Positions 3,240-28,916 of a stretch of 40,764 nucleotides of DNA are shown one piece after another. A program made the translations under genes and the position numbers. The notes below the pieces were generated by a model. The model was not told the DNA's origin. It was given only the letters and a program-made list of their open reading frames with translations, and did not search any database. Every line of letters begins with the position of its first letter. Within the stretch, counting starts at the first letter, position 1. Source of the DNA: Lentisphaerae bacterium RIFOXYC12_FULL_60_16 (GTDB lineage Bacteria; Verrucomicrobiota; Kiritimatiellia; UBA8416; YA12-FULL-60-10); assembly GCA_001803315.1 (NCBI GenBank), contig MHBQ01000108.1:1-40764 (forward strand), written 5' to 3'.

Positions 3240-3871
3240 GACGGTTTCCCTCCCGTTCCCGGCACGGGCGCGTCGGCGGGTTTCAGGAAGCAGGCCTTGA
3301 CGATCCAGACGAACACCGCCAGGGCGAAGAAGGCGCCCGGCGCCATGGCGAGGATCGTCCAGTTGGTCCACCAGGAGCCCATGACCGGAATGCCCCAGAG
3401 CGTACCGGACCCCATCAGTTCCCGCACCACGGCAATGATCAGGAGCACATAGGAATACCCCAGTCCGGCCGCCAGGCCATCCACCAAAGCGAGCCGGGGC
3501 GGGTTGGTCAGGGCGAAGGCCTCGGCACGTCCCATGACAATGCAGTTGGTGATGATCAGGCCGACATAGGGGCCCAGTTCGCGCGAGATGTCCGGGAGGT
3601 ACGCCTTGAGCAGGATGTCGACCACAATCACGTAGGTGGCGATGATCAGCACTTCCACCATCATCCGGACTCGTCCGGGAATCCAGCGGCGAAGCGCCGA
3701 GACGGTCACGTTTGATAGGGTGAGCGTGAAGCAGAGCCCGATACACATCACCACCGTGTTGCGCAGCACGTTGGTGACCGCGAGGGTCGAACAGATGCCG
3801 AGAATCTGAACGAATACCGGGTTATCCCTGCCGATTCCCGCGAGGAATTGTTTGCGTTCACGGGAGCTCAC
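3236..3871 (-). CDS. nqrD: NQR/RNF membrane subunit NqrD/RnfE-like
   Basis: '[18 protein letters not shown]' and '[22 protein letters not shown]' signatures; 4-nt overlap with nqrC. Confidence 0.9.
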
Positions 3872-4464
3872 GGCTGCTCCTTGGCGTCTGTGGACAGGAC
3901 GGCGTTGAGGATGTCCCGGACGGCGGTGGAGGTGATGGTGGCGCCGGTGATGCCGTCGAGTTCGTCCGGGGCGGTGGAACGCGTGCCTTCCGGAACCAGG
4001 CGGAAGGGGCCGGATTTGCCGCGGACCTGTTCCCCGAACCAGGGTTCGGCGATGCGTGCGCCCAGCCCGGGGGTTTCGTTCTGTTCGGTAAAGGTCATGC
4101 CGGTAATGCGCCCTTCGGCATCCAGGCCGATGGCGGCGGTGATGCGGCCCCAGAGGCCCGGCCCGCTGTGCAGGATTACCCGTTTCGGTTCGGTGGTGTC
4201 GGGGTCACGGACTTGGAATGCCGTTGCGTTGTCCATCGGCGTGACGCTGGACGTGAACCATTCGGCCAGTGCGGCAGCGGATTCCATGGGCGGCAGACCG
4301 GCGGCCGTGCGGACCGCCCGGCGGACAAACAGATCGGCGTTGTCATGGACCCGCTGGAGGGTGGTGACATGCAGGACCGAAACCGCACCGACACATACGA
4401 TGGTGATGCCGATCATGAACCCGATCGTTCGGATCCCCTGGGCAAATCGGCCGGGTGGGCTCAT
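3868..4464 (-). CDS. nqrC: NQR subunit C-like (short, RnfG-sized), FMN-binding
   Basis: Single N-terminal TM and 'GITGATITSTAV' covalent-FMN motif; 4-nt overlap with nqrB. Confidence 0.85.
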   Translation of the reverse strand: MSPPGRFAQGIRTIGFMIGITIVCVGAVSVLHVTTLQRVHDNADLFVRRAVRTAAGLPPMESAAALAEWFTSSVTPMDNATAFQVRDPDTTEPKRVILHSGPGLWGRITAAIGLDAEGRITGMTFTEQNETPGLGARIAEPWFGEQVRGKSGPFRLVPEGTRSTAPDELDGITGATITSTAVRDILNAVLSTDAKEQP

Positions 4465-5414
4465 GACGCGGCCTCCCCGTTGCGGGTTTCAAGGCGGCGT
4501 ATGCCGATATCCATCAGGGGGGCGAACATGTTGGCCAGCAGGATGGCGAACATGGTGCCGGCGGGCCAGGCGGAAAAGGTCCCGATGACCGACGACAGGG
4601 CTCCCACGAATGCCCCGTAGATCCACCGGCCGGTGTTGGTCTGGGAGGCGGAGACCGGATCGGTGGCATAGAAGAAGATGCCGACCAGGAAACTGCCGGC
4701 CAACATGCCGCGCAGGGGATCCATCGAGCCCGGAGCGCCTGCCAGCCAGAAGGTCAACCCCGCAATTAGATAGCCCAGTAAACCGCCGATGACGATCCGG
4801 AAATTGGCGGTCCGTGTGAAAACGATATACAATCCACCCAGCAGAACGGCCCAGGCATAGGTGCCGCCGATCGTGCCGGGCAGATGTCCAAATGCAAGAT
4901 CCATGATCGCGAACGATTCGCCCGTCTTGAGCAGCATGCCCGGGGTGGCGGTGGTCACGGCATCCGGCATGGATGGTGCATACGCCAGGAATCCGCCCCA
5001 CCCGTGGTTGAACGGCAGGGTCCATTGTGAGGTCATGGGCCCGGCAAAACTCACGTAGATGAAGGCGCGACCGGTCAGGGCCGGGTTGAAGATGTTCTTG
5101 CCGAATCCCCCGAATACCATCTTGCCGAAGATCACGGCGAACAGGATGCCGACCACCGCCATCCAGTACGGGAGGGCGGGCGGGAGGGAGAGGACGAACA
5201 GGGTGGAAGTGACGAGTACGGCGGAACTGACCGGTTCGTGATAGGGGCGGAGGAACAGCCATTCGGTGAACACGGCGACAGCCCCGGCAATCGCCAGGAG
5301 TGCCATCACGCGCCATCCGTAGGCGTATACCGCCATGATTATGATGGGCACCAGGCCGATCAGCACCCGGCGCATGGGTTGTTGCCAACGTAGAAAAGGT
5401 TGTGTGGCTGTCAT
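4461..5414 (-). CDS. nqrB: NQR subunit B-like (short, RnfD-sized)
   Basis: Polytopic; '[17 protein letters not shown]' and 'DAVTTATPG' FMN-site region; '[13 protein letters not shown]'. Confidence 0.85.
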
Positions 5415-5501
5415 GGTCGTTTACAAGGTCACACTGTACCGGTTTGTCCGGCAACATTCACCTTTTTTTGCATGGGTTGTCCGGGGTCGCGTCCGGTCTG
5501 G

Positions 5502-5570
5502 CTGGAGCCGGGGCGACCCCGCCCCGGTCTGGTCTGGTCCGGCTGGAGTCGGGGCAACGGATTCGCCCCA
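5502..5570. repeat. GC-rich intergenic repeat, copy 1 (contains hairpin CCGGGGCG-ACCC-CGCCCCGG, 5508-5527)
   Basis: Shares CTGGAGCCGG..CGACCCCG and GGTCTGG words, plus terminal GC hairpins, with the reverse complement of 29944-30018; 40747-40764 matches that copy exactly over 18 nt. Confidence 0.6.
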
Positions 5571-5612
5571 TTGCCGCGATCGAAATGTTGCGTTGGTTTC
5601 GAGTGGTTGAGT

Positions 5613-5642
5613 TTGACGGTGGGATTGTCGGCAGGGTATGAT
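5613..5642 (+). promoter_or_regulatory. Predicted sigma70-type promoter of rubredoxin (TTGACG-N18-TATGAT)
   Basis: -35 TTGACG at 5613-5618 and -10 TATGAT at 5637-5642, about 64 nt before the rubredoxin ATG. Confidence 0.6.
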
Positions 5643-5705
5643 GGCGGCCAACTTGTGTTCTGGACGTTAGCCCCGTGCTTGCACGGAGATGTGTGGAGGC
5701 GACCC

Positions 5706-5864
5706 ATGAAGCGTTACGTGTGCAATGCGTGCGGATATATTTATGACCCCGCCAAGGGAGATCCGGATAACGGCGTAGCGCCGGGGACGCCCTTTGAGTC
5801 GGTACCGGACAGCTGGGTGTGTCCGGATTGCGGAGTCGGTAAAGACGAGTTTTCTCCGGAATGA
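5706..5864 (+). CDS. Rubredoxin
   Basis: 52 aa with '[46 protein letters not shown]'; SD GGAGG upstream. Confidence 0.97.
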
Positions 5865-5868
5865 TTCC

Positions 5869-6648
5869 GTGCGGCTGACCCGTACCGGCCTGGACATCCT
5901 GTATGACCGCACCAACCGTCAGGAACTGATTCACCCGGATCCCCTGGAGTTCCTTTCGGATTATCCGGAACTTCCAGACCGTGAATTGGCAGGTTTCATT
6001 GCCGCGAGCCTGGCTTTCGGCCGGGTGGCGCAGATCCTGAACCGTTTGACCGTGGTCTTCGGCCTGATGGGGCCATCGCCCCGACGGTTTATTGATTCTG
6101 CTTCCGATGACTGCCTGCGCGATTTGTTCGGGACGTTCCGGCATCGGTTTGTGGATGGTCCTGCGTTCGTCTGTTTCTTAAAGGGCATCCGTCGCCTGCT
6201 CGAACGGCATGGTTCGCTTGAATCGGTCTTTCGGGACGGACAATCGGTGCAGGACGAGACCGTGATCCCGGGCCTGGTGCATCTTTTCCGGGAGTTGGGA
6301 GTCAAGGGGTCCTACCTGGTGCCCGACCCGTCTGCCGGGGCCGCCAAACGGCTGCATTTGTTCATGCGTTGGATGGTGCGGTCGGATGCGGTGGATCCCG
6401 GGGGGTGGCGCGGGGTTTCACCTGCCCGTCTGGTCGTGCCGCTGGATACGCACATGGCCCATGTCGGCCGGCGTTACCGGTTGACGCGCCGGCGAACCGC
6501 CGGGCTGGGGATGGCGCTGGACATTACCCGGGCGTTTCGCAAACTCAATCCCGACGACCCGGTGCGGTATGACTTTTCCCTGACCCGGTTTGGCATACGC
6601 GGGGAACTGGACTGGCCGGACCTAGACCGCCTGATGGTCTGCCCGTAA
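5869..6648 (+). CDS. TIGR02757 (DUF2400) family protein
   Basis: 'ELAGFIAASLAFGRVAQILN', 'RLHLFMRWMVR...DPGGW', 'PLDTHMAHVGR', 'YDFSLTRFGIR'. GTG start at 5869 in frame, just after the rubredoxin stop. Confidence 0.85.
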   Translation: MRLTRTGLDILYDRTNRQELIHPDPLEFLSDYPELPDRELAGFIAASLAFGRVAQILNRLTVVFGLMGPSPRRFIDSASDDCLRDLFGTFRHRFVDGPAFVCFLKGIRRLLERHGSLESVFRDGQSVQDETVIPGLVHLFRELGVKGSYLVPDPSAGAAKRLHLFMRWMVRSDAVDPGGWRGVSPARLVVPLDTHMAHVGRRYRLTRRRTAGLGMALDITRAFRKLNPDDPVRYDFSLTRFGIRGELDWPDLDRLMVCP

Positions 6649-6685
6649 CGGATCCCTCCGGCGATGGTGATGCGGAGCATTCATC

Positions 6686-7642
6686 TCATGTCCTGTCCTG
6701 AATGGCAGCGGCGAGTTCGCTGGAGGCGAGGGCATCCGCCAGGGTGGCGGTTTCAAATGGCCGGCGGGCGATGACCGCCTCGATGAATCCGGCGTTTTCC
6801 GCGTACGCTCCGCTGGTGATGAATCCGGGTTCGTTGTCGGGGGACCGGTGAAGGAGTACTTCACGCATCGAATGGACGATACGGACCCGTCCCGGGGGCA
6901 GGGTGCCGGTATGAACATCTACTTGGTATCCGTTTCCCAGGAAGCGGATGTGTTCCTCCCATTCACCGGCAGTCGGGGCCAATTCCAGGGTGACCCGCGT
7001 CCGGTTGCGCCCCTGGAACACGGCTTGCCGCCAGTTGTCGTGTCCGGGATGGGGGCAGATTGCCGGGGTGGACAGGGCCAGTGAGCCGATGGCGAACGAG
7101 AGGGCATCGATGAGGTGGAGACCGGTACCCCAGGGGAAGTCGGGTTCGGTTCGTTCGGCGCGTAGCATGGCGCCGTGGACCAGCCGGGGCGGTTCCTGCG
7201 TACGGAGCCATTCCAGGGCAAGCCGCAGCGCCGGATCAAAACGCCGGTTGAACGAGACCATCGTGCGGTCCATGGCGCCGGTTCGGCGGGCTTCGTCGAG
7301 CAACTGGCGGGCTTCCGCCAGGTTGTTGCCCAGCGGTTTCTCGATCAGCAGGGGAATACCGAGCCGGAAAAGTTCCGGGGTCACGCGGAGCATGGCGGGA
7401 ATCGGGAGGATGGCGACCAGGGCATCAGGCGGTCCGATGGGATGGCACATCAGATCCTGCAGACTGGTGCAGGCATGTTCGAACCCGTATTTGCGGGCAC
7501 AGGCGTCCGCCCTGGCGTGGTCCAGATCGCATACCGCTGAAAGCGTGATGCGGCCGGGGTGGAGTTTTGCGTAGTGCTGTAACGGCAGGGCGTGTGCGGT
7601 GCGACTGTGAGCGCCCGCACCGAGCAAGGCAATGCGGATCAT
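6686..7642 (-). CDS. Gfo/Idh/MocA family oxidoreductase
   Basis: N-terminal Rossmann 'IRIALLGAGAHSRTAHALPL' and 'LLIEKPLGNNLAEARQLL' (EKP motif); ATG overlaps the upstream gcvT-like stop. Confidence 0.85.
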   Translation of the reverse strand: MIRIALLGAGAHSRTAHALPLQHYAKLHPGRITLSAVCDLDHARADACARKYGFEHACTSLQDLMCHPIGPPDALVAILPIPAMLRVTPELFRLGIPLLIEKPLGNNLAEARQLLDEARRTGAMDRTMVSFNRRFDPALRLALEWLRTQEPPRLVHGAMLRAERTEPDFPWGTGLHLIDALSFAIGSLALSTPAICPHPGHDNWRQAVFQGRNRTRVTLELAPTAGEWEEHIRFLGNGYQVDVHTGTLPPGRVRIVHSMREVLLHRSPDNEPGFITSGAYAENAGFIEAVIARRPFETATLADALASSELAAAIQDRT

Positions 7643-8766
7643 GTGGTGGACACTCCGAGGAAGTCGGCCATCGGCCGGCGTGCGGTGGCGCCGGTATGGA
7701 AGGGGAGTGTGACCACCTGGCCGGGGAGATCGGCCCGCTCGGTATGGATCTGCAAGGGGGTTCCGGCGGTTGCCTGGGCGGAATCGACATAGGCCAGTGC
7801 GATGGCGCATCCCAGCGAGGGGGCAAAACTGCCGCTGGTCACACAACCGATGGTCTGTCCGGCTGCCGTGATCACCGTGTCCCCGTGGCGGGCGGCCCGG
7901 CGTCCGCCCAGGCGGATGCCGCACAAGCGTTGGGGAGCGGCATCCGGCCGGCGAATGGCATAGGCGCCGGAAAAGGTCTTGGCGGAAGCGATGGCGCGGG
8001 TAAAGCCGGTCTGGGCAGCGTTGCGGGTGGGGCACAATTCATGCCCATAAAGCGGCATGCCCATTTCCAGGCGGAGTGTATCCCGGGCGCCGAGCCCGGC
8101 GGCCACGGCGCCGAGTGCCTGGGCCTCGCGCCAGAACCGGCGTGCGGAAGCCGGGGTGAGATACAATTCAAAACCGATTTCGCCGGTGTAGCCGGTACGG
8201 CTGATCCGGACCTCCTCGCCGTGGTAACGGACGGACGTGAATCCGTAGTAGCCCGGGTCGGTGAGTCCTTCCACCAGCCGGTTCATGATCCTGGGGGATG
8301 CCGGCCCCTGCAGGTCGAGCTTGGCCACCTTGCTAAAACAGTCCTCAACCTGGGTGGAGGGGGACTGGTGGGCCTTGATCCAGGCGGCATCCTGGCGCCG
8401 GGTGGAGGCGTTGACGACCAGGAGGAATTCATCATCGCCCAGCCGGTAGACCAGCAGGTCGTCGAGAACACCGCCTTCCTCGTTGCACATCAGGCCGTAG
8501 CGGCAGCGGCCGGCCGGGAGCGAGGCGACATCACAGGAAACCAGGAGTTCAAGATCGCCTAGTGCATCCGGTCCGCTGATCCGGAACGATCCCATGTGGC
8601 AGGTGTCGAACAGGGCGGCCCCGGTGCGGGCGGCCAGGTGTTCCGGGATGATTCCGGTGTATTGGATGGGCATGTCGAACCCGCCGAATGCCGCCATGCG
8701 GGCGCCTTGCTCGAGGTGCAGGTTGTGCAGGCAGGTTTGCTGCAGCGGCTTGTCGGAAGCGGTCAC
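7639..8766 (-). CDS. gcvT: Aminomethyltransferase (GcvT)-like folate-dependent protein
   Basis: 'RMAAFGGFDMPIQYTGIIPEHLAARTGAALFDTCHMGSFRISGPDA', 'ISRTGYTGEIGFELY', 'GARDTLRLEMGMPLYGHEL'. Confidence 0.9.
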   Translation of the reverse strand: MTASDKPLQQTCLHNLHLEQGARMAAFGGFDMPIQYTGIIPEHLAARTGAALFDTCHMGSFRISGPDALGDLELLVSCDVASLPAGRCRYGLMCNEEGGVLDDLLVYRLGDDEFLLVVNASTRRQDAAWIKAHQSPSTQVEDCFSKVAKLDLQGPASPRIMNRLVEGLTDPGYYGFTSVRYHGEEVRISRTGYTGEIGFELYLTPASARRFWREAQALGAVAAGLGARDTLRLEMGMPLYGHELCPTRNAAQTGFTRAIASAKTFSGAYAIRRPDAAPQRLCGIRLGGRRAARHGDTVITAAGQTIGCVTSGSFAPSLGCAIALAYVDSAQATAGTPLQIHTERADLPGQVVTLPFHTGATARRPMADFLGVSTT

Positions 8767-9383
8767 GTGATCATCCGGTCTTCGAGATGCGCGACACAGT
8801 TCCCCAGCCTGAGGACGGCGTTGCCGGATGCATAGACTTCCATGATGGAGACGGCGGTATGGTTGATGTCGATCAACAGCGACTCGTGGGGATTGCGGCC
8901 TCCGAACAGCGGCATGATGGTCCGGATCACGTTTCCATGGCAGACCAGCAACACCCGTTCACCCGGCGAATGGTTGCGCCGGATTTGCGCCACGACCCGG
9001 TCCAGGGCCGCGCGTTCGGTGCCGATCCGGGGGAGATCCGGATGATCCGGCGGGGGTGGGTCCGCGAAATGATAATTCATCACTTCCTGCAGATCGGCCG
9101 TGACGGTTACCGGGGTGGAGGGGTGAAAACGGGCGATGACCCGTGCCGTGTCGTTGGCGCGTTGAAGATTGCTGGCGTAGAGGTGATGGATCCGCTGGCC
9201 GGACAATCGGCGCGCAACCCGTTCGGCCTGTTTCCATCCAAGATCCGATAACGGCGGATCGATGTCCGGGTTGGCCACATCCACCTGTTGCTGGCCATGG
9301 CGGACAAGGATGACGGTCAGGGGCGCCTGCGAAACCGGTTTGGGTTCACGCGGCAATTTGATTTTCACCATGCGATCCGGCAT
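8763..9383 (-). CDS. Histidine phosphatase (phosphoglycerate mutase-like) family protein
   Basis: 'VILVRHGQQQVDV' RHG motif and 'VLLVCHGNVIR'. Upstream ATG at 9395 is possible; 9383 chosen because of promoter spacing. Confidence 0.85.
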   Translation of the reverse strand: MPDRMVKIKLPREPKPVSQAPLTVILVRHGQQQVDVANPDIDPPLSDLGWKQAERVARRLSGQRIHHLYASNLQRANDTARVIARFHPSTPVTVTADLQEVMNYHFADPPPPDHPDLPRIGTERAALDRVVAQIRRNHSPGERVLLVCHGNVIRTIMPLFGGRNPHESLLIDINHTAVSIMEVYASGNAVLRLGNCVAHLEDRMIT

Positions 9384-9418
9384 GTCCCGTACCATAACGA
9401 AATCGTTACCGGGGTCAA
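9381..9418 (-). promoter_or_regulatory. Predicted promoter TTGACC-N16-TATGGT-N7-ATG with palindrome TAACGA-AA-TCGTTA in the spacer
   Basis: On the minus strand: -35 at 9418-9413, -10 at 9396-9391, ATG at 9383. Perfect inverted repeat at 9395-9408. Confidence 0.5.
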
Positions 9419-9471
9419 GTGCGGAGCGACCCCGTGCCGGCTCCTAAGGATTCGCTGGGTCGGTCGGGTCG

Positions 9472-11424
9472 TCAGGCGCCGGTGATCGGGGTATCTCCCC
9501 GGAACGGGTGGATCGTGATGCCTGCGCGGGAACCTGAAATTGGCAGGTGAACGGTTTCCTCACGTGCAGACACCGTAATCCCGATGCTGGGCGGTGCTTT
9601 TACGCTGGAGGGGTAGGCTTGGATTTCCGTTACGCACAGATGTCGTACGGCGGCCCCGGGGGTTGTCAGGCGCAGGAGGTTCATGGTTCCTTGTGGTGTC
9701 CGGGATGTGTGGAGGAGGGGCTGTTCTTCCAGGGTTGCAACAACGGTTGCCGGTGCATGGATCCGGATCTGGCAGGCGGCCGTTGTGCCATGTCCTGAAA
9801 ATGTCTGGACGCCATCAGCGGCAACCGGGAAGCCGGTATGGAACAACTGGGTCAGCGTGACAGGCCGGGCACTCTCCATCGCATCGATGATGATCCACGT
9901 GTCGGGCCGGAGGTAGAACACGAAGCGGCGGAGCGCGGTCAGGCCGGATTGGTCCGGGTAGGCGTTGGTCATGTCCGCCATGCAATAATCCCAGGCGCCA
10001 TGGTGTTCCGCCCGCCCCATGAAGGGGTATTTACGTTGCCGCCGATACGGCAGATCCTCCAACCATTCCGATTGGTCGCCCAGTTGTCCGGTCCCGTTGA
10101 TGAGGATGGTGTTGTGGTAGGAGGTGTCTTTCCAGACATAGCCGGGATGTGCCAGGATCCACGCATCATGGGCGAAAATCTGCACGTCACCGTTGTTCGG
10201 ATGCATGTGCCCGCCGCCAAGGGGATGGGTGAATCGCCGGGCTGCGTGGTGTCCGACATTCGGCCCGCATTTCACGGCACACGCCGATTCCGTGCCACTC
10301 CAGTCGCTGCGCATGATCACGATGCCGTAATCCTCCAGGTAGTCGAAGGGGGGACGGGTGGTCGGGGCGACGGGTTTTACCTCCGGGTCGTGGAGCAGGA
10401 ACGAGAAGGGGGAGGTTCCCATCTTGCCGCTCTCCAGGAATTCATCGGCAAACCACTGGGCCGTTTCGTCCTTCAGGCGGCTGGCGATGATCCGGAGGAT
10501 GCTTTCGTGCCCGAATGCATGGCCGTGTGCGTCGCCCTGGTTGAAGAAAACGTTATCCGACCGCCAGGATGTCCGCGCCACGGTTTGTGCGTGGAGCGAC
10601 CGGGCGTGCCGGGCCAGCCAGGGAGTTGTCTCGAACAGGTCGAACCCCATCAGGTCTTCCGCCAGGAGAAAACTGATGATCAGGTAGCTGGTATAATATC
10701 CGCCGTACATGATGCCTTCCGGCGATACCCCGTCCGGGCCGAGCGCCAGGCTCTGCAGGCGCATCTTTTCCCACGCCAGGTTCATGATGGGCGCGATGTC
10801 GGGCCGTTCCCCGTACAGGCAGGCGGCAGTGGCCGCCACGCCGCCGAGCACCACGGCGGAAATGTTCCAGGTATAGCCGAACGGTTCGCCGGAACGGTAG
10901 GTTGCCCAGGCGTCAAACACCTGCCGGGTGCGTGTATAAAGTGTTTCCACGTGGGCGTTGCGCGTGGCCGCATCGAGATCATGCCACATCCAGTCGAGGG
11001 CGAATGCGAATCCGCGCGCCCAGTGCCCGTAGATGAGTGAATGGCCCCAATCCTTCTCGTCGGTGAGCCGTTGCATGAGGTAAGCGAGCCGGGTGCGGCA
11101 GGATGCATCATCCGTCAACCGGGCCAGCAACGCCAGGAGGATCATTTGCTCGCCGAGATGGCGGACATCGAACTGATGGGGAGGGGTCCCCATCAGGGTT
11201 GCGGGGAGTTCCTGTGCCAGGAGCGACTGGCCCTGCTTGACGAGTTCGGCGAACCAGCCTTTCCACGGATCGGTACCCAGATGGGCGCGTAACCGGGTGA
11301 AGGGGTGTTTGATACACAGCATACGCGGGTGGATACCCAACAAATCCGTTTCGATGGGAGTGGCGCTGTTGATGACATCCGCCGCCGCGATGGCGGTGGG
11401 TGAGGCAGGGGAAGTGGTTGTCAT
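9472..11424 (-). CDS. Heparinase II/III-like polysaccharide lyase family protein
   Basis: 650 aa; alpha-toroid N-terminal half; 'HMHPNNGDVQIFAHDAWILAHPGYVWKDTSYHNTILINGTGQ' resembles the heparinase II/III catalytic region. Confidence 0.8.
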   Translation of the reverse strand: MTTTSPASPTAIAAADVINSATPIETDLLGIHPRMLCIKHPFTRLRAHLGTDPWKGWFAELVKQGQSLLAQELPATLMGTPPHQFDVRHLGEQMILLALLARLTDDASCRTRLAYLMQRLTDEKDWGHSLIYGHWARGFAFALDWMWHDLDAATRNAHVETLYTRTRQVFDAWATYRSGEPFGYTWNISAVVLGGVAATAACLYGERPDIAPIMNLAWEKMRLQSLALGPDGVSPEGIMYGGYYTSYLIISFLLAEDLMGFDLFETTPWLARHARSLHAQTVARTSWRSDNVFFNQGDAHGHAFGHESILRIIASRLKDETAQWFADEFLESGKMGTSPFSFLLHDPEVKPVAPTTRPPFDYLEDYGIVIMRSDWSGTESACAVKCGPNVGHHAARRFTHPLGGGHMHPNNGDVQIFAHDAWILAHPGYVWKDTSYHNTILINGTGQLGDQSEWLEDLPYRRQRKYPFMGRAEHHGAWDYCMADMTNAYPDQSGLTALRRFVFYLRPDTWIIIDAMESARPVTLTQLFHTGFPVAADGVQTFSGHGTTAACQIRIHAPATVVATLEEQPLLHTSRTPQGTMNLLRLTTPGAAVRHLCVTEIQAYPSSVKAPPSIGITVSAREETVHLPISGSRAGITIHPFRGDTPITGA

Positions 11425-11549: not shown

Positions 11550-13850
11550 TCATGTTTTGTGTTTCGACCGTGCGATGATGTGGTCCTGCAGTTCGCGGCT
11601 GATGAGCTTGAACATCTGCGAGTAGCCGGCCACGCGGACCGGGATGTTGCCGTAATGTTCGGGATCCTGCCGTGCCTGTTCCAGGCGTTCCGCAGTGGTG
11701 ACGTTCATCTGGAGCTGGCCAACCCCCATGGAGATGGCCGATTGCAGGACCTTTGCGAGAAGTGTGACGCCTGCTTCCCCGGCCACGAACGAGGGATCCA
11801 CGTCGATGATGGCGGCGGAAGCGCCGGCGGCCCGTTTGTGTGGCATCCGGGCCAGCGAGTTGATCATGGCGGTCAATCCTTCGAGGTCACGGCCCTGGTG
11901 GGCCGACAGGGAATAGGCAACTGGTTCACCGGCCCGCCGCCCGTCCGGCGTGGCGCCCAGCGATTTGCCAAAATCGATGTTGAGCAGGAAGGTGAACAGG
12001 TGGACCACGTACCGCCCGCCGAGCGGGCTGCGCATGCCGTCCATGAGATCAATGAAGTGGTTGGTGATGCGGCCGGCAAACTGGTCCACATCGGCCTGGT
12101 CGTTGCCATATTTGGGTGCGCCGTTGAGCAGGAGTTGCCGGACAGGTTCATGGCCCTCGAAATTTGCACGCAGGGCATCGAGCAGGGTGGCGGCGGAGAG
12201 TTTCTTTTGGTCGAACACCAACTGCTGGATCGCGCACAACGAGTCCGCGGTATTGGCGGTGCCGAGGAAACAGATGGAGTGGTAGTTGTAGATGGCGCCG
12301 CCGTCGGTGATGTCGCGTCCGCGGGCAACGCAGTCGTCCGTCAACAGCGACCAGCAGGGGAGGGGTCCCCGTTCCCGCTGGCGCAATTCGCCCAGGTTGC
12401 AGTTATACACCATTCGTTCGGCGAAGCATTCAACCTGCCGCTGGTAGGCATCCCATAGCTGGTCGAAGTTGGTGAAGTCGGTCAGCAGACCGGTTTCGGG
12501 GCCCAGTTGTTCGCCGGTACGCGGGTCCTTGCCGTTGAACAGGGCGAGTTCCAGGCATTTGGTAGCGTGGAACCAGCCGGATACGGCATGGGGATTGGCT
12601 TTGCCGGGGATGGTCAGCTCGATACAACCGATCGGCGCATAGTCGCGGGCGTCTTCCAGGACGATGCCGTGGTCCACCAGGGCCGGAATGAAGCAATCGT
12701 CGTTGAACAGGAAGGGGATGCCGCCGCCCCGGACAATCATGGACGCACAGGTTTCATAAAACGCGGGAGGGGTTTCGCGGTTTACCCGGACCGACAGGTC
12801 ACGTATGAAATCCACGGTACGGGTGGCTTCGAGGATGATACCGGTCATTTCGTTGATGGCCGATTTTCCGGTGCGGTCAACACCTCCCAGCACAATGGCC
12901 TGCACGTCATATTCGAGGTAGAGCTTGCAGGCCAGCTCCGCCATGAGTTCGACGGCAGCCTGACGGGTTGTGCGGCCGGCCTGGAGGTCGGCTTCATAGT
13001 AGGGCTGCAGCAATTGATCGAGTCGTCCAATCGAGTTGGCGTTGATGCCGTCTTCCCCGCAGGTGAGGATATGGGCCAGCCACAGTGCCTGTGTGGCTTC
13101 GAACAGGGTGCGGGCGCCGCGAGCAGGAACCTGCTCACAGGTTTCCGCCATGTGCAGCAAGCGTGCCTTTTCTGTCGGGTCGGTCACCGTGTCCGCGAGT
13201 CGGCGGGCCGTTTCGGCGTACCGTTTGCCGAGCAGGATTCCGGCATCACAGATGTCGCGGGCGGCAAGCAGGAAGTTTTCAGATTGCACGCGATTGGGAT
13301 CCGTGATGGCGATATGCCCCAGGCGTTCTTCGACCTGCTCCCGCAAGCCTCCGAAACCGAGGCGAAGGACGCGTGCATAATCGCGTACCGAATGATTTTC
13401 CATCCATCCCATGGACATGTAGACATTTTGTCCCCATGAGCCGCGTCCGCGCTGGGTGTCGGGATCGATCTGGCCGACTGCCTGGTAGGGGTAACCATTG
13501 ATGTATCCCGTGACGCACTGGCGGATCGTCTCAACCTGGCCGGGATCAATCCCAAGTTCTGCCAGGTGTGCCGGCTCAGGTGGACGGTTGGGATCGCGCA
13601 ATCCGAAATAGTGACCGGGCAGGTGTTCGCCGGCGAGGGACCAGAGGGGCGGGAACTCCACCGGGGGCAGGGCGACCAAATCCTTCAGCAGTGCGCCCCG
13701 CACCTGGACCGTTGAAAGCGAGTTTGAAAACACCCGCCATAAGGCAACATCCCGCGCGTAAGGGGTTGGATTTGTCGGGAAGGAACCCTTGCGCGCCATG
13801 ATCTGGGTGCGCAATTGCTTCAGTCGTTCCGGAAGCGGTGAGTCGTTCAT
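11550..13850 (-). CDS. Glycyl radical enzyme (PFL2/dehydratase-type), GRE1
   Basis: 766 aa; radical-site loop 'VRVAGYS' (11619-11636) near the C-terminus; active-site 'IGCIEL' (Cys codon 12624-12626, C-x-E type). Confidence 0.9.
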   Translation of the reverse strand: MNDSPLPERLKQLRTQIMARKGSFPTNPTPYARDVALWRVFSNSLSTVQVRGALLKDLVALPPVEFPPLWSLAGEHLPGHYFGLRDPNRPPEPAHLAELGIDPGQVETIRQCVTGYINGYPYQAVGQIDPDTQRGRGSWGQNVYMSMGWMENHSVRDYARVLRLGFGGLREQVEERLGHIAITDPNRVQSENFLLAARDICDAGILLGKRYAETARRLADTVTDPTEKARLLHMAETCEQVPARGARTLFEATQALWLAHILTCGEDGINANSIGRLDQLLQPYYEADLQAGRTTRQAAVELMAELACKLYLEYDVQAIVLGGVDRTGKSAINEMTGIILEATRTVDFIRDLSVRVNRETPPAFYETCASMIVRGGGIPFLFNDDCFIPALVDHGIVLEDARDYAPIGCIELTIPGKANPHAVSGWFHATKCLELALFNGKDPRTGEQLGPETGLLTDFTNFDQLWDAYQRQVECFAERMVYNCNLGELRQRERGPLPCWSLLTDDCVARGRDITDGGAIYNYHSICFLGTANTADSLCAIQQLVFDQKKLSAATLLDALRANFEGHEPVRQLLLNGAPKYGNDQADVDQFAGRITNHFIDLMDGMRSPLGGRYVVHLFTFLLNIDFGKSLGATPDGRRAGEPVAYSLSAHQGRDLEGLTAMINSLARMPHKRAAGASAAIIDVDPSFVAGEAGVTLLAKVLQSAISMGVGQLQMNVTTAERLEQARQDPEHYGNIPVRVAGYSQMFKLISRELQDHIIARSKHKT

Positions 13851-17897: not shown

Positions 17898-18727
17898 ATG
17901 AGCAAAAGCAAGAAAATCCAGATTCGCAACAGCACCGCCGAGTTCCTCGTCTTCACCTCGCAGGCCGGGGAAAAGGGCATTGAAGTCCGCGTAGAGGACG
18001 AAACTGTCTGGCTCACGCAGAAGCTCATCGGCGTGCTGTTTGAGGTGGATGTCCGCACCGTCAGCGAACACCTCCAGAACATCTTCGCCGGTGCTGAACT
18101 GGCTGAGGAGGCAGTTATCCGGAAATTCCGGAATACTGCCAGTGATGGAAAAACCTACCTTACCGCCTTCTACAACCTTGATGCCATCATCGCCGTCGGT
18201 TTCCGTGTGAATTCCGTCCGTGCCACCCAGTTTCGCCAGTGGGCCATCGGCGTTCTGCGCGATTTCGCCATTCGCGGATATGTGCTGGACAAGGAACGGC
18301 TGAAAAACGGCGTCTTCATGAGCAGGGAGTATTTCGACACCCTCCTCGCCGAGATCCGTGAGATCCGCGCCAGCGAACGCCGTTTCTACCAGAAGATCAC
18401 CGACATCTACGCCACCGCGATGGACTACAACCCGGAAGCGGATGTCACGCAGGCCTTTTTCGCCACGGTGTAGAACAAGCTCCACTTCGCCATTCACGGC
18501 CACACCGCCGCCGAATTGATAGTGGAACGTGCCGACAGCACGAAGGACAAAATGGGCCTCACCACCTGGCGCAACGCCCCCAAGGGAAAAATCCTCAAGC
18601 CCGATGTCGTCGTCGCCAAGAACTACCTCACCGAGAAAGAGATCAAGGCGCTCGACCGGATCGTCACTTTGAGTCCGACTTCGACCGCCTGATCAAGCAA
18701 CTGCCCAGACAGGGAGACGCGCCTTGA
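17898..18727 (+). pseudogene. RhuM-family (virulence protein RhuM-like) pseudogene
   Basis: ORF 17898-18473 reads as RhuM N-terminus; in-frame TAG at 18471; same-frame homology resumes 'NKLHFAIHGHTAAELIVERADSTKDKMGLTTWRNAPKGKILKPDVVVAKNYLTEKEIKALDRIVT', then a frame change to 'FESDFDRLIKQLP' ending at TGA 18725-18727. Confidence 0.85.
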
Positions 18728-19410: not shown

Positions 19411-21660
19411 TCAGGGGGAGGAACGTCCTGACCATTGTTCAAATTCGGTGCGCAACAGCACCTCATCCTGCATCTCCGGGGAAAGGCGTGTGAAGTAATC
19501 CGTGTACCCCCCGATCCGGACCACTAGGTCGCGGTAGGCTTCGGGGTGGGCCTTGGCTTCCTGCAGGGTGGCCCGGTCCACGACATTGACCTGGATCTCA
19601 AACCCGCCGCGGCGGAGAAAGGAGACTACCAGGTCCTTGAGACGGTTCACGGACGATAGGTTGGTCAACAGTTGGCGGTTGAATTTTATATTGTAGGCCA
19701 CCCCGCCGATAAAGGGTGACGCATCCCAGCAGGTGGAGGAAAGGATGGCGGAGGTGGGTCCCTGGTGTTCCCGGCCCTGGGCGGGACCGCCGCCATCCGC
19801 AAAGGGCAGACCTGCGCGACGACCATCCGGCGTGGCGCCGCACTGGCGGCCCAACTGCTCGTGCATGATCCAACAGAACGCGCCGGGAATGAAATGGCTG
19901 TTGTCGGGATCCACGCGGTACCGGGCGCATTCCTGTGCAATCCGGTGTACCAGGAGTTTCATCAGGTCGTCGACCGCGGGGTCGGCATTGCCGAATTTGG
20001 GATGCCGGTTGAGAAACTGAAGACGGGTTGCCTCGTGGCCCTGAAAGTCCGTGTCGAGGACGGCCTTCATTCCGGGAAAGGTCATGGTCCGGGATTCGAA
20101 AACCTGGCGTCGGATCACCTCCAGCGAGTCCACCAGGTTGGCCAGACCGACAAAGGAACATTCGATCCAGTTATAGCGGGCGCCGCCTTCGTCGATGTCC
20201 CGGCCCCGTTTCAGGCAATCCCGGGTGAATATGCTCTGCAGCGGTTTGCCGCCGTTCAGCCGGCGGTGTTCCCGGTAATCGTTCTGGACCTTGAACCCCT
20301 CGTCGCGGATGTGCGAGGAGAGGCGGTCGAGGTAGGCATCCAGGAAGGCGTCAAATGTCGGGGCCGGTGATGGACCTGCTGCCTGGTGGCTGATTTCCTC
20401 GAGGAGGAACCAACACGTGCTGAAATAGGGGGAGGCTACCCAGACATTGCTGGATCCGGAAGGGGTGATCTCGACACAGGTTGAATTGATATAGCGATGG
20501 GATTCCCGGGCTGGAACCCCGTAACGGCGCAGTCCGCGCTGGATGGTCTCATCGCCGAACAAGGCGGGTGTGGAATATCCCTTTGAGATCAGGTCCACGG
20601 CCAGGGCGGTCAGGTCATCCGGCGTGCCTTCATGCCAGGCGATGCCGACCGTCGGGTAGACCAACCGGGTCCGGCGCAAGGCTTCCAGGCACAGGTAGGA
20701 GAGGCGGTTGGTGGTATCCCGCCCATGCCGGTCACGGCCTCCCACCATGACCGGGATGGCCAGACCGTTGGGGATCACTGCATTAATGTGAAAATAGAGC
20801 GCCTCGATCAATTGCAAGGCTCCGTTGTCGTCGAGGATTCCGGAATCAATGTCATGCCGGTAATACGGGAGCAGGGTCCGGTCCAAGCGCCCGGGAGCCG
20901 TCAATATCGCCTGGTCGGTGACCTGGACTCCCCAATCGATAAACCAGACCAGGTGGATGGCGTCCAACAAGGTTTCCGGCGGCGCCTGCATGATGTGCCG
21001 GCAGGATCGGGCGATCCGGTCCAATTCGGCCCGGCGGGCGGGTGCGGCAAGGGGGATGGCGGATTCAACCGCTTGTGCGGCATGTCCGATCATACCGATC
21101 AAGCCGGCCACGCCGGAAGCAAAAGCCGCATACGTCTCGCGGCGTTCCCCCGTGGAATTCGACGCACGCTGTTCAATGATACGGTTCAACCTGGCCAGAC
21201 CGAACCGGAAAGCCAGGGAACGATCCAATTCGCAATGGCCGGTCTGGCCGGGTTCCGGGCCGAACGTTCCCAGGTAGGCGGTCATGGCGTCATGTTCGGC
21301 ATCGGGGATGGTCCCGCCCTGGCAAGCGGGAAGGTTTTCCGCGGAAAACGACGGGAGTCCGGCCAGCAGATCCGGTTCGTGCATGGTAAACGGGATGGAT
21401 TCCAGGCGGGCACGGGTCCGGAGTCCCCGCCGGATCCGTCGCGGCAAACCCTCGGATGCCTTCAGGGACTGGTATCCTGTCCGGAGCAGGTGGGCGCTCT
21501 GCCATTGCCATCCGGTGTCGGTTTTTGTAGCGAGGATCCTGGACCGGATGGCGTCACACCGTGCGTCAGATGAAATGGAGTCGAACCGAAACCGGATTTC
21601 CGGTTCCGGGTTATTCCGGGTTGTTTCGTTATAATGCAGGGTAGCGTCGGATCGTTTCAT
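19411..21660 (-). CDS. Glycyl radical enzyme (PFL-like, C-x-E type), GRE2
   Basis: 749 aa; 'VVRIGGYTDYF' radical loop (19501-19518) and 'INSTCVEITPSGSSN' active site (Cys codon 20476-20478). Confidence 0.9.
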   Translation of the reverse strand: MKRSDATLHYNETTRNNPEPEIRFRFDSISSDARCDAIRSRILATKTDTGWQWQSAHLLRTGYQSLKASEGLPRRIRRGLRTRARLESIPFTMHEPDLLAGLPSFSAENLPACQGGTIPDAEHDAMTAYLGTFGPEPGQTGHCELDRSLAFRFGLARLNRIIEQRASNSTGERRETYAAFASGVAGLIGMIGHAAQAVESAIPLAAPARRAELDRIARSCRHIMQAPPETLLDAIHLVWFIDWGVQVTDQAILTAPGRLDRTLLPYYRHDIDSGILDDNGALQLIEALYFHINAVIPNGLAIPVMVGGRDRHGRDTTNRLSYLCLEALRRTRLVYPTVGIAWHEGTPDDLTALAVDLISKGYSTPALFGDETIQRGLRRYGVPARESHRYINSTCVEITPSGSSNVWVASPYFSTCWFLLEEISHQAAGPSPAPTFDAFLDAYLDRLSSHIRDEGFKVQNDYREHRRLNGGKPLQSIFTRDCLKRGRDIDEGGARYNWIECSFVGLANLVDSLEVIRRQVFESRTMTFPGMKAVLDTDFQGHEATRLQFLNRHPKFGNADPAVDDLMKLLVHRIAQECARYRVDPDNSHFIPGAFCWIMHEQLGRQCGATPDGRRAGLPFADGGGPAQGREHQGPTSAILSSTCWDASPFIGGVAYNIKFNRQLLTNLSSVNRLKDLVVSFLRRGGFEIQVNVVDRATLQEAKAHPEAYRDLVVRIGGYTDYFTRLSPEMQDEVLLRTEFEQWSGRSSP

Positions 21661-21663
21661 GGC

Positions 21664-24537
21664 TTATGGGATAGGTTTAATTTCCTGGATGGCATCCTGC
21701 GAAAAACCGGAGTCGGTTTTAGCGATGAAGGAAGATTCGATATCGGTTTTCAGATGGCGGATGTTTTCCATGAAATGCTTAACATTGGGATCGTGTTCTT
21801 CGCGTCCATGTCCCGCGAGGCAGAGCGCATCGTAAACGGGGGACCACTGGTCCTCGTTGGTTTCGATCTCGATGCAGGGATTGAGCACATACTTTCCCGT
21901 GCGGATGCGCACGAACAGTTTGCGGTTGGCGGAATAATTTCCCGCGATCTCGTTTCGGGCCAGGACGGAAGATAGATAGGCGCGAACCCGCCGGCGTTCC
22001 GGGATGACTGGTTCGGGGAAATGTTGGAGCGGTGCGACGAAGTCGCCGGTTTGGAAGAGGGGTTCCCGGAAACGTTCCGCCTTGCCCAGCACGGCTTCGA
22101 AGCGGGCGAACATGGAGTGGACTAGGAAGAATTCCATTTGATGACGATCGAGTTTAACGAGGCGGCCATGAACCCGCAAGCGGAGTGAGGAGGGTGCCAG
22201 GGTTTCGTACACGGGAGCAAACTTGTCGCGGGCAAACGATGGGTTTTCGTAAGCTTCGCGCAGGGCCATTTGAAACGCGATCAGGCCGGTATTGTCGCGG
22301 GCTCGCGGATCGGCGCCATCGGCGATCAACTGTTTGACCAGGTCGATCTGGCCCAGACGGGCGGCCAACATCAGGGGCGTCTGGTTGAGCGGATTCCGGA
22401 AGTTGACGCCGTATTGGTTGATTTTCCGGCGGAGGGAACTCCAGCCCTTCTCGTGATAATCGCGGGTGTATTTGGCCTCCTCGTTGGCGCGATGAACCTC
22501 CGGGGTGTGGGCGGGGTTGAAGCCAAGTTCGCGCAATTGCCGGAATATATGGCGCAGGGAATAGGCCAGGGCATAGTCGAACAGCAACAGTTTGGCCTGG
22601 CGATTGAAGCGATTCGGATCCAGCGCTTCCTTCAGCAGGTCGGGGTAGGTGGCGGTCGTCAGGACGCGCCATGGCACGGTCTGGGTCCCCAGGATTACCC
22701 GTCGGATCTCGTCGGCCTGGTCGCGTTTGCCCTGCTGTTCGAGTTTGTTGGCTTCCGCCTTCCATTCGTCGAGGGACGAGGTCTGGTCGGCGACACGAAT
22801 CTCCCGCTTTTCGACGTGAAGATCGAGCAGATGGAAGAGGCGGTGATGGGTCTGGCTTTCGATAAGGTAGAGGTTGCGGATCGAACGCGTCGCGGCGACG
22901 TAAAGCGCGTTGATGAAAAATTTGTAGGCTTCCAGCGATTTGTCCGTTTTATCCTTGTTCCGGGCGTAGGCCAGTTCATTCCGCTGAAGATCGTCGGGGG
23001 TTACGTCCCGGGTGATTTCCTGGAATTCGGCGGGGTGGCCGGAAACGAAGTCGAGCAGAATCACGTTCTCGTATTCGAGTCCCTTGGCGTCCTGTACGGA
23101 GAAGATCAGCGGTGTTTGGAAGAAGGCGCGGGCGGCGGGTTTGTCCTCGGGGCGGAGCACCATGACGGCGAACCGCGTGGAACGGTTGGTGCGGCGGTTG
23201 AGTTCCTGTTTGGTCCGGGGCGTATCTTCGAGCAATTCGATCGTGCCGGGTTTGTCGGCGACGGACCGTACCAGATAGTTGCTTTCCCGGTCGATCGAGC
23301 CGAAACGGGTGTGTTTGATCAACAAGAGTCGATTGGCAAGTCGGGTGATTTCGGGGGAGTTCCGGTAGTTGGCGTTCAAGACCCGGATGATCTCTCCGTG
23401 GCCGGAGAGCCGTTCCTCGTAGAAGAGGGTCTTAACGGCGGCCCAGGAGAAGAAGTTGGGATGCACGATCTGGTTGGAATCGCCGCACAAGACGAAACGG
23501 GTGGGGTGACGCAGGGACTTCAGGATGAGCGCCAGTTGGACGGCCGTCAGATCCTGGACTTCATCCGCGACGATCCAATCGTATGCCGGCTGGCAACGGG
23601 GAAGGTGTCCGTGGCAGATCAGATTCAGGTCGTAATAGCCGGTGGACTTCAGGACGGCGAGGTATCTGACAAACAAGTCGTAGACGGCGGGGCGTTCTTC
23701 GCCGGTGAAGATCGAGCGACGGACGCCAAGCGAGAGATAATCGTCGCGTGAAAGGTGGGGCCGGTCGATGGAAGCGCCCGTGATGACGCCGTTGAATTCC
23801 TCGAACAAACGGTGGGAGTCCCGGATCGGTCCGCCATGGCAATGCCGCCGGAACCAATCGGCGAAAGCCGTGTAGTCCATCGGTTTCCCGGGTGGTACGG
23901 CGATGGTTTCGAGATATTCGCGGAAGGAGAGAAATTCGACGTTCTGGCCGTCGTTTTCGTAATGATGGCCGTAGTACAGGGAGCGGGCATTTTCCACGAG
24001 GAACGGCGAATGGGTCACGTAGAGGATGTCACCGGAGAATTGGCGCAGCTTGGCCAGGGTGAGAACGGTCTTTCCACTTCCGGCGGATCCGATCAGGATC
24101 AGCGGCGGGGCTTGGATGAGCGCCTGATCCTGGAGATCGTCGAAGGAAAGGATTTTGTCGAGCAGATGGAACTTCCCGGATTTCGGGTTGATGTAATGCA
24201 GGCGTTCGAGGTCGGCGGGTTGAACGGCGTCGGGGTGCGCCAGTGGGGCCAATTTGGATTCGTCGATGGTCGCGCCATTCAGAAAGCGGGACTTTTCATA
24301 AGCATGGTTGCGGATGATTTCCAGCAACAGCAAATGCCGCGCGTCGCCGCAAACGCCAAAACGGAAAATGAGACGGTCGCTGTCGTTCAGCTTGGCGCGG
24401 TAATAGGAGGATCCGGTGAGCTTTTTCGCATCCGCGGCCCGGAAGTCGCCTTTGCGGAGGTGTTCGACAACGCGGTCGTAAGAAGGTTTCAAGCCGGACG
24501 TGTCGAGGTCGTGATGCGTTAAAATCGGAATATCCAT
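21664..24537 (-). CDS. SF1 (UvrD-like) helicase/ATPase with N-terminal RelE/ParE-like domain and C-terminal ankyrin repeats
   Basis: Walker A 'LIGSAGSGKTVL'; Walker B 'DWIVADEVQDLTAVQ'; 'LCGDSNQIVHP'; 'SVQDAKGLEYENVILLD'; 'YVAATRS'. Ankyrin-like 'NPLNQTPLMLAARLGQIDLVKQLIADGADPRARDNTG'. N-terminal 'KLTGSSYYRAKLNDSDRLIFRF...LLLLEIIRNHAYEKSRFL' is RelE-like. ATG 24576 is an alternative start. Confidence 0.85.
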   Translation of the reverse strand: MDIPILTHHDLDTSGLKPSYDRVVEHLRKGDFRAADAKKLTGSSYYRAKLNDSDRLIFRFGVCGDARHLLLLEIIRNHAYEKSRFLNGATIDESKLAPLAHPDAVQPADLERLHYINPKSGKFHLLDKILSFDDLQDQALIQAPPLILIGSAGSGKTVLTLAKLRQFSGDILYVTHSPFLVENARSLYYGHHYENDGQNVEFLSFREYLETIAVPPGKPMDYTAFADWFRRHCHGGPIRDSHRLFEEFNGVITGASIDRPHLSRDDYLSLGVRRSIFTGEERPAVYDLFVRYLAVLKSTGYYDLNLICHGHLPRCQPAYDWIVADEVQDLTAVQLALILKSLRHPTRFVLCGDSNQIVHPNFFSWAAVKTLFYEERLSGHGEIIRVLNANYRNSPEITRLANRLLLIKHTRFGSIDRESNYLVRSVADKPGTIELLEDTPRTKQELNRRTNRSTRFAVMVLRPEDKPAARAFFQTPLIFSVQDAKGLEYENVILLDFVSGHPAEFQEITRDVTPDDLQRNELAYARNKDKTDKSLEAYKFFINALYVAATRSIRNLYLIESQTHHRLFHLLDLHVEKREIRVADQTSSLDEWKAEANKLEQQGKRDQADEIRRVILGTQTVPWRVLTTATYPDLLKEALDPNRFNRQAKLLLFDYALAYSLRHIFRQLRELGFNPAHTPEVHRANEEAKYTRDYHEKGWSSLRRKINQYGVNFRNPLNQTPLMLAARLGQIDLVKQLIADGADPRARDNTGLIAFQMALREAYENPSFARDKFAPVYETLAPSSLRLRVHGRLVKLDRHQMEFFLVHSMFARFEAVLGKAERFREPLFQTGDFVAPLQHFPEPVIPERRRVRAYLSSVLARNEIAGNYSANRKLFVRIRTGKYVLNPCIEIETNEDQWSPVYDALCLAGHGREEHDPNVKHFMENIRHLKTDIESSFIAKTDSGFSQDAIQEIKPIP

Positions 24538-24620
24538 GCGCTTTTTCCACCCTAACCGGAAACGAAATCGAACCATAACGAACGGATGGTTTGGTTGGGA
24601 GAAAAATCGTCACAATCCCC

Positions 24621-28033: not shown

Positions 28034-28152
28034 AAGTTGTCCTCAACAGCTTACTGAACAATGCAAACCCCGCGAATATTGTATCACAAATGTGCATCTC
28101 AATCGGATGTGGCCGTTTTGGTTTTGCGATCTGCCGGCCGTTCGGCGGGACA

Positions 28153-28181
28153 TTGACAATGTGGTCACAGGTGGTTACATT
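28153..28181 (+). promoter_or_regulatory. Predicted promoter TTGACA-N17-TACATT of the toxin-antitoxin operon
   Basis: -35 28153-28158, -10 28176-28181, immediately before ATG 28182 and 6 nt before in-frame ATG 28188. Confidence 0.55.
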
Positions 28182-28469
28182 ATGGACATGAAACGCAGAA
28201 AGAAACCGTTTGTTTATCCCGTCGAGAAGGGCCGTGTTGTGTCGGTTCGGGAAGCCAAGGCGCAGTTGTCGGCCCTCATTGGTCGTGCAGGGACAGGAGA
28301 ATCAATTACCATCGCGTGGCACGGGCGGCCTCGCGCGCGACTTGTCCCGATTGATGAAACGCGTCGGAAATTCAAAGTGGATCGTGCATGGTTGAAATCC
28401 ATGAAGGTACAGGGTGCCGGCGAACGGTCGGAAGTGATGGTGAGAAACGACCGTGATGCCAGGGGGTGA
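28182..28469 (+). CDS. Type II antitoxin, Phd/YefM-like
   Basis: 'VVSVREAKAQLSALIGRAGTGESITIAWHGRPRARLVPID' matches the prevent-host-death antitoxin pattern. Start may be 28182 or 28188. Confidence 0.88.
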   Translation: MDMKRRKKPFVYPVEKGRVVSVREAKAQLSALIGRAGTGESITIAWHGRPRARLVPIDETRRKFKVDRAWLKSMKVQGAGERSEVMVRNDRDARG

Positions 28470-28472
28470 TGC

Positions 28473-28916
28473 ATGTATCTGGACAGTGCGATTCTGGTCA
28501 AGCTGGTGGTTCGGGAACCGGACAGTGAATATTATGCCGACCTGGTTGATGGGCAACGGACGGTAACTGCTTCTGAACTGGTGGTGGCGGAATGTCGGTC
28601 TGCTTTGCTCCGGAAATGCAGGCAGGGCGAGATCGATACCCGAACTTGTGACCAATCGTGGGAAAGACTTCAGGCCTATTGGGATTCCGATGCCGGGGGA
28701 TTGATATTGCATCCGGTGAGCCGGATTATTTTGGAAGAAGCGGGTGAAGTCATCAAGCGGTGTATCGCGCGTGTGTCCGTGCGCACCCTGGATGCCATTC
28801 ATCTGGCATCCTGCAGGCTGACGCGTGACTACCCACTGATTACCAACGACCACGTTATGCGGGCTGCCGCGGAATCGATGGGATTGCCGTTGGGAGATCT
28901 TCCGCATATGCCATAA
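28473..28916 (+). CDS. vapC: Type II toxin VapC-like, PIN domain
   Basis: 'MYLDSAILVKL', 'ASELVVAECRSAL', 'VRTLDAIHLASC', 'LITNDHVMRAAAESMG' give the PIN acidic quartet; 3 nt after the antitoxin stop. Confidence 0.9.
   Translation: MYLDSAILVKLVVREPDSEYYADLVDGQRTVTASELVVAECRSALLRKCRQGEIDTRTCDQSWERLQAYWDSDAGGLILHPVSRIILEEAGEVIKRCIARVSVRTLDAIHLASCRLTRDYPLITNDHVMRAAAESMGLPLGDLPHMP

What the first reader, a model, noticed from the sequence alone, without database searches (positions are those of the whole stretch)
21664..24537. RelE-like domain + SF1 helicase + ankyrin repeats in one protein
The N-terminal ~90 aa has a RelE/ParE-like pattern (KKLTGSSYYRAKLNDSDRLIFRF...LLLLEIIRNHAYEKSRFL), followed by a UvrD-like ATPase core with all main motifs, and ankyrin-like repeats in the C-terminal part. 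The combination recalls TRANK1-type helicase/ankyrin proteins. A nuclease-fold domain on a helicase with a protein-interaction module is a plausible defence or RNA-surveillance effector, and it lies in an accessory region with a RhuM relic and a VapC pair. This is my leading candidate for an undescribed system.
Basis: partly seen in the sequence, partly recalled or inferred. Interest (0 to 1): 0.65.

Follow-up and report, generated by a model that had tools for sequence, protein, structure and literature searches.

The report
RelE toxin domain fused to helicase
A single, widely scattered bacterial protein joins an mRNA-cutting-toxin-like (RelE/YoeB) domain to a DNA/RNA motor and ankyrin repeats; it belongs to a large family (at least 535 loci, nine phyla, and more than 100 Shigella and E. 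coli plasmids) that no protein-family or defence-system library we searched names, and it may be a self-contained nucleic-acid sensor that switches off translation.

Summary
The gene (window 21664-24537, minus strand, 957 aa) encodes an N-terminal RelE/YoeB-fold domain, an SF1 UvrD-like ATPase with every core motif intact, a TPR-like helical stretch, about two ankyrin repeats and a probable winged-helix end. The RelE call no longer rests on pattern reading: AlphaFold2 gives pLDDT 94, and Foldseek's best PDB matches are almost all RelE/YoeB/YafQ/ParE/HigB structures (best YoeB, probability 1.00). Basic/His/Tyr positions that line the RelE/YoeB active site are invariant or nearly so in 59 homologues. 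The architecture is a fixed unit: full-length homologues at 42-57% identity occur in at least nine phyla, on plasmids (>100 Shigella/E. coli records) and next to a Mu-like prophage. It is in 15 of 346 genomes of the window's class, so accessory, not core. The defence-island part is not supported: the gene is solitary, without conserved partner or antitoxin, among mostly ordinary metabolic neighbours. Best reading: an antitoxin-less RelE-type RNase held in check and triggered in cis by a nucleic-acid motor, working like Cami1 (sensor plus RelE) or SLFN11 (RNase plus SF1 helicase). Fold, fusion, conservation and distribution are shown; activity and trigger are inferred.

The parts
21664..24537 (-). 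whole gene, 957 aa: RelE-like domain + SF1 helicase + TPR-like helices + ankyrin repeats + C-terminal domain
   Evidence: ORF; single copy in own genome; full-length homologues; AF2 model pLDDT 88.1, pTM 0.88
24547..24553 (-). AGGGTGG, possible ribosome-binding site
   Evidence: sequence
24280..24531 (-). RelE/YoeB-fold domain, aa 3-86; site residues K39, R47, K49, R55, E73, H78, Y80
   Evidence: AF2 pLDDT 94.2; Foldseek PDB best 7v5y YoeB prob 1.00, TM (target) 0.68; K39/R55/E73/H78/Y80 59 of 59, R47 58 of 59, K or R at 49 59 of 59
24148..24279 (-). linker, aa 87-130, with conserved G-A-x-[IV]-D-E-x-K
   Evidence: alignments; a similar IDESSL in the distant Cetobacterium relative
22813..24147 (-). 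SF1 UvrD-like helicase core, aa 131-575
   Evidence: Pfam; Foldseek PcrA/UvrD/Rep/FBH1/HelD, E down to 4.5e-12
24067..24090 (-). motif I (Walker A) GSAGSGKT, aa 150-157
   Evidence: 7 of 8 positions invariant in 59 homologues
23551..23565 (-). motif II (Walker B) DEVQD, aa 325-329
   Evidence: D, E, Q and D invariant
23443..23487 (-). motif III CGDSNQ followed by the family signature VHPNFFSW, aa 351-365
   Evidence: invariant or nearly so
23359..23370 (-). motif IV NYRN, aa 390-393
23071..23085 (-). motif V KGLEY, aa 485-489
   Evidence: invariant in 59
22885..22902 (-). motif VI YVAATR, aa 546-551
   Evidence: V, T and R invariant
22690..22773 (-). TPR-like helical hairpin, aa 589-616
   Evidence: helices in AF2 model; the equivalent region of the Cetobacterium relative gives weak TPR hits; inference
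22243..22422 (-). ankyrin repeats, aa 706-765
   Evidence: PF00023 E 3.7e-7 and Ank_2
21838..22197 (-). C-terminal domain, aa 781-900, helices then a beta hairpin (LFVRIRTGKYVLNP), winged-helix-like by inference
   Evidence: AF2 secondary structure; R849, Y854, R877 and Y883 invariant

Best explanation
It is a self-contained, single-gene conflict or stress effector. A RelE/YoeB-type ribonuclease domain is kept quiet by, and triggered through, the SF1 ATPase to which it is fused, in place of a separate antitoxin. The motor, helped by the ankyrin and C-terminal modules, would recognise an abnormal nucleic acid or nucleoprotein made by phages, plasmids or damage. On ATP-driven engagement the N-terminal domain would be released to cut mRNA, probably in the ribosomal A site as RelE does, shutting down translation. 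Shown here: the fold, the fusion as a fixed unit, conservation of the site residues and of every helicase motif, the patchy and horizontally mixed distribution, and the lack of a conserved partner gene. Inferred: RNase activity, ribosome dependence, autoinhibition, the trigger, and the phage or plasmid defence role.
For: RelE fold. RelE/YoeB site pattern kept: K39, R55, E73, H78 and Y80 in 59 of 59, R47 in 58 of 59, K or R at 49 in 59 of 59; a joint alignment puts K49, R55, H78 and Y80 on the conserved R, R, H and Y of genuine YoeB/RelE toxins. ParE gyrase poisons are described as lacking the essential catalytic residues of BECR-fold RNases (PMC11980606). Helicase fully intact, so both parts are under selection together. 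In the phylum scan the RelE domain was met only at the head of this architecture (7 of 8 in frames of 953-1156 aa, the eighth split at a contig edge). Patchy: 15 of 346 and 8 of 289 genomes. The window clade mixes Verrucomicrobiota, Kiritimatiellota, Lentisphaerota, Thermodesulfobacteriota, Nitrospirota and Acidobacteriota. Found on plasmids and beside the repressor of a Mu-like prophage. Design precedents appear in the Foldseek lists: Cami1, a CARF-RelE bound to a 70S ribosome (ranks 33 and 40), and SLFN11 and GajB for the motor (ranks 39 and 45).
Against: No defence-island or operon association; a solitary gene gives no guilt-by-association. Absent from the INPHARED phage collection, and only one IMG/VR contig holds it. 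YoeB's catalytic Glu46 has no acidic equivalent at the aligned place (K38/K39). Foldseek E-value for RelE is modest (2.6e-3) at 18% identity. A conserved fold and conserved residues do not prove catalysis. The best motor matches are DNA helicases, so an RNA or ribosome role for the whole protein is inferred.
Confidence: 0.45

Rival explanations
1. RNA or ribosome surveillance factor: the motor tracks mRNA or stalled ribosomes and the RelE domain cuts A-site mRNA to free them, a stress function with no anti-phage role.
For: RelE fold and site residues; neighbours are ordinary metabolic genes, not defence genes; Upf1, Ighmbp2 and Setx also appear among the motor's structural matches.
Against: Only about 3-4% of relatives carry it, and one copy is decayed; presence on plasmids and beside a prophage; the best motor matches are DNA helicases.
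Confidence: 0.22
2. The RelE-fold domain is not a nuclease but a docking module (as ParE docks on gyrase), and the protein is an accessory DNA repair, replication or plasmid-upkeep helicase.
For: Best structural matches of the motor are PcrA, UvrD, Rep and FBH1; present on many plasmids, including invasion plasmids; no antitoxin gene; no acidic residue at the YoeB Glu46 place.
Against: The basic/His/Tyr set is invariant in 59 aligned homologues from eight phyla, more than a docking surface would be expected to keep.
Confidence: 0.22
3. An injected effector aimed at eukaryotic hosts, because ankyrin repeats are common in such effectors.
For: Homologues in Shigella/E. coli and Piscirickettsia plasmids, a Legionellales MAG, an Endozoicomonas species and animal symbionts.
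Against: Most carriers are free-living sediment and water bacteria; the protein is a complete SF1 motor with no sign of a secretion partner; neighbours differ everywhere.
Confidence: 0.03

Closest known systems
RelE/YoeB toxins (RelE/ParE superfamily, BECR fold)
   Same: Fold, order of strands, conserved R...R...H/Y positions.
   Different: Fused to a motor, no adjacent antitoxin gene, about 18% identity, no acidic residue at the YoeB Glu46 place.
Cami1 (CARF-RelE, type III CRISPR ancillary effector)
   Same: A RelE-type domain joined to a sensor in one chain; appears in the Foldseek list.
   Different: The sensor here is an SF1 ATPase with ankyrin repeats, not a CARF domain; no CRISPR link seen.
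UvrD/PcrA/Rep and GajB (Gabija)
   Same: SF1A motor motifs; top structural and PADLOC matches.
   Different: Short IV-V spacing (no full 2B), RelE domain in front, ankyrin and C-terminal modules behind; no GajA-type partner.
SLFN11 (Schlafen group 3)
   Same: One chain with an RNase domain followed by an SF1 helicase; a structural match of the motor.
   Different: Different RNase fold; weak sequence match only (SLFN-g3 E 0.037).
TRANK1-type helicase/ankyrin proteins
   Same: By recollection: UvrD-like motor plus TPR and ankyrin repeats.
   Different: Not tested here; whether TRANK1 has a RelE-like domain was not examined.
Cetobacterium somerae plasmid UvrD-helicase protein (L024)
   Same: RelE-like N-terminus, IDES-type linker and helicase.
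   Different: 24% identity, TPR-like C-terminus instead of ankyrin.

Membership tests
RelE/ParE superfamily | BECR (RelE) fold | tested here: met
   AF2 pLDDT 94 and Foldseek prob 1.00 to YoeB
RelE/ParE superfamily | RelE/YoeB catalytic-site residues | tested here: inconclusive
   Basic, His and Tyr positions invariant, but no equivalent of YoeB Glu46
Type II toxin-antitoxin module | adjacent antitoxin gene | tested here: not met
   No recurring small neighbour in 85 loci; the Phd/YefM-PIN pair lies about 3.5 kb away and has its own toxin
RelE-type mRNase | ribosome-dependent mRNA cleavage | not testable with these tools
   needs biochemistry
SF1 UvrD-like helicase | motifs I-VI | tested here: met
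SF1 UvrD-like helicase | large 2B domain between motifs IV and V (UvrD/PcrA/Rep) | tested here: not met
   about 95 residues between NYRN and KGLEY
Gabija (GajB) | partner GajA nuclease next to the gene | tested here: not met
   no OLD/TOPRIM-type neighbour recurs; PADLOC scores only generic
Known anti-phage system in PADLOC-DB 2.0 | full-length match to a system model | tested here: not met
   best 36 bits over part of the helicase
Defence-island gene | enrichment of defence genes nearby | tested here: inconclusive
   121 nearest neighbours: no PADLOC family above 2 members at 1e-15, so no enrichment is seen, but no matched background was run
TRANK1-like proteins | sequence relationship of the motor | not tested
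   no TRANK1 sequence or fold was at hand

The most novel reading that the evidence does not exclude
A RelE-type, ribosome-directed mRNase controlled in cis by a nucleic-acid motor: the first RelE-family toxin that needs no antitoxin because a helicase is both its lock and its trigger, spread as a solitary immune gene through nine phyla and carried by Shigella/E. coli plasmids of the invasion type.
Probability: 0.33. Interest if true: 0.82.

Novelty: new variant of a known kind. Interest (0 to 1): 0.6.

Why it matters
RelE toxins are normally held by a partner antitoxin. A large family that fuses the toxin fold to a complete ATP-driven motor would give a new way of gating mRNA interferases and a one-gene system that can be tested directly. 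It also gives a concrete, testable domain assignment to an unannotated gene that recurs on more than 100 sequenced Shigella and E. coli plasmids.

Tried and rejected
Single-sequence scans of genome contigs and viral contigs found nothing; the 7-row alignment found 535 relatives in genome contigs but one viral contig. Sequence profiles of the N-terminus against PDB and Pfam gave no significant RelE hit, and hhalign was only just above shuffled controls; structure decided it. A conserved partner gene was sought by clustering 938 neighbour ORFs of 85 loci: none, except an SNF2 + SWIM pair directly downstream in four loci. An empty-site comparison in Nitrosomonas failed because the flanking desaturase lies at a contig end in the third genome. 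Paper searches for a described RelE-UvrD or ankyrin fusion found none; supplements could not be read, so prior mention in a table is not excluded. Rejected: core housekeeping gene (patchy), classical TA module (no antitoxin), known PADLOC system.

Full report
What is there. The minus-strand frame 24537-21664 encodes 957 aa, present once in its own 4.1 Mb, 188-contig genome. Pfam sees AAA_19, UvrD-helicase and ankyrin. No NCBIfam model comes near its cut-off, and PADLOC gives only generic helicase scores.

The N-terminus. Sequence methods alone leave the RelE idea open. An AF2 model of aa 1-118 from 65 homologues has pLDDT 94. Foldseek against the PDB ranks YoeB (7v5y, 7v6w, 6n90), RelJK, YafQ, H. 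pylori toxins, archaeal RelE, ParE2, HigB and Cami1 as its best matches, with probability 1.00 at the top. Txp40, an insecticidal protein at ranks 18 and 30, is the one other protein among the best 36. In 59 full-length homologues K39, R55, E73, H78 and Y80 never vary, R47 varies once, and position 49 is always K or R. A joint alignment with ten YoeB/RelE toxins puts K49, R55, H78 and Y80 on the toxins' conserved R, R, H and Y. That such residues are catalytic in RelE/YoeB is established knowledge of those toxins. YoeB's Glu46 has no acidic counterpart here.

The motor and the rest. Walker A GSAGSGKT, Walker B DEVQD, CGDSNQ, NYRN, KGLEY and YVAATR are invariant or almost so. The full-length model has pLDDT 88 and pTM 0.88. 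Its PDB matches are led by PcrA, FBH1, UvrD and Rep, with HelD, Upf1, SLFN11 and GajB further down. The IV-V spacing of about 95 residues is too short for a UvrD-type 2B domain (direct reading). A TPR-like hairpin, about two ankyrin repeats and a conserved C-terminal domain follow. The last looks like a winged helix (inference from secondary structure).

The family. Full-length relatives run at 42-57% identity. 15 of 346 genomes of the class carry a match, and 8 of 289 of the phylum carry the N-terminal domain, essentially always heading the long frame. Many are MAGs, so single assignments may be wrong. Plasmid records: Methylosinus pOB3b_02, Deinococcus p_1, Polymorphobacter p29362-2 beside a Tn3 transposase, Piscirickettsia, and 101 Shigella plus 13 Escherichia records. 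One IMG/VR contig carries it next to Mu-type repressor, Ner, MuA and MuB genes. A decayed copy exists in G027 (L006). A tree mixes phyla within the window's clade, consistent with transfer, not proof of it. A distant Cetobacterium relative keeps the RelE-like head and helicase but has a TPR-like tail.

Context. No neighbour family is conserved. The 121 nearest neighbours are mostly metabolic and show no recurring defence family; no matched background was run. In the window the gene ends 3 bp before a glycyl-radical-enzyme ATG and stands back to back with a DUF4450 protein. A RhuM relic and a Phd/YefM-PIN pair lie within 6 kb. So 'accessory' is right and 'defence island' is not shown.

Mechanism. 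The most economical reading is a sensor-effector in one chain: the motor senses a nucleic acid, the RelE domain cuts mRNA, and no separate antitoxin is needed. Cami1 and SLFN11 are precedents for such chains. Activity, autoinhibition, trigger and benefit are all inferred. Rivals are a ribosome-surveillance factor, and a non-catalytic docking domain on a repair helicase.

Novelty. A 2025 survey of multidomain RelE/ParE proteins (PMC11980606) has 'helicase', 'UvrD' and 'ankyrin' zero times in its main text and states that many multidomain proteins without identifiable antitoxins were left out. Its supplements were not readable here. I rate it a new variant of a known kind. The homologue on Shigella/E. 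coli plasmids was seen only as search-result rows; its neighbourhood was deliberately not fetched. That most of those records are invasion plasmids is my reading of their hosts and sizes.

Noticed in passing
window 18111-18668 (+): RhuM (PF13310) remnant, 185 of 252 profile positions, E 7.8e-84, with one in-frame TAG; the only RhuM match in the genome.
   Followed up: partly
window 28092-28916 (+): Phd/YefM-type antitoxin gene followed 3 bp later by a PIN-domain (VapC-like) toxin gene, a mixed pairing.
   Followed up: partly
window 19411-21660 and 11550-13850 (-): Two different glycyl-radical enzymes (PFL-like) in one window; the first starts 3 bp after the helicase stop codon, so the two may be co-transcribed.
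   Followed up: no
L062, L076, L094, L098: Directly downstream of the RelE-helicase gene, on the same strand, an SNF2 helicase (DUF3670) and a SWIM zinc-finger protein (an XRE-type HTH was seen in the one scanned, L062); three are Gammaproteobacteria and one is Lentisphaerota, so the trio may be a recurrent unit.
   Followed up: partly
L115 (IMG/VR contig), 3303-10856: RelE-helicase gene lies outside the repressor end of a Mu-like prophage, where cargo genes are often found, next to a primase/AlpA-type element.
   Followed up: partly
L024 5857-8715 (Cetobacterium somerae plasmid): RelE-like head plus helicase with a TPR-like tail, suggesting a wider RelE-helicase class with exchangeable C-termini.
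   Followed up: partly
L006 (G027): Decayed copy of the gene: start and a helicase fragment joined by internal deletions in a 223-codon frame.
   Followed up: no
L074 and L081 (Nitrosomonas): A genuine YoeB-type toxin gene with a likely antitoxin gene just before it lies 2.6-5.3 kb downstream of the RelE-helicase gene.
   Followed up: no
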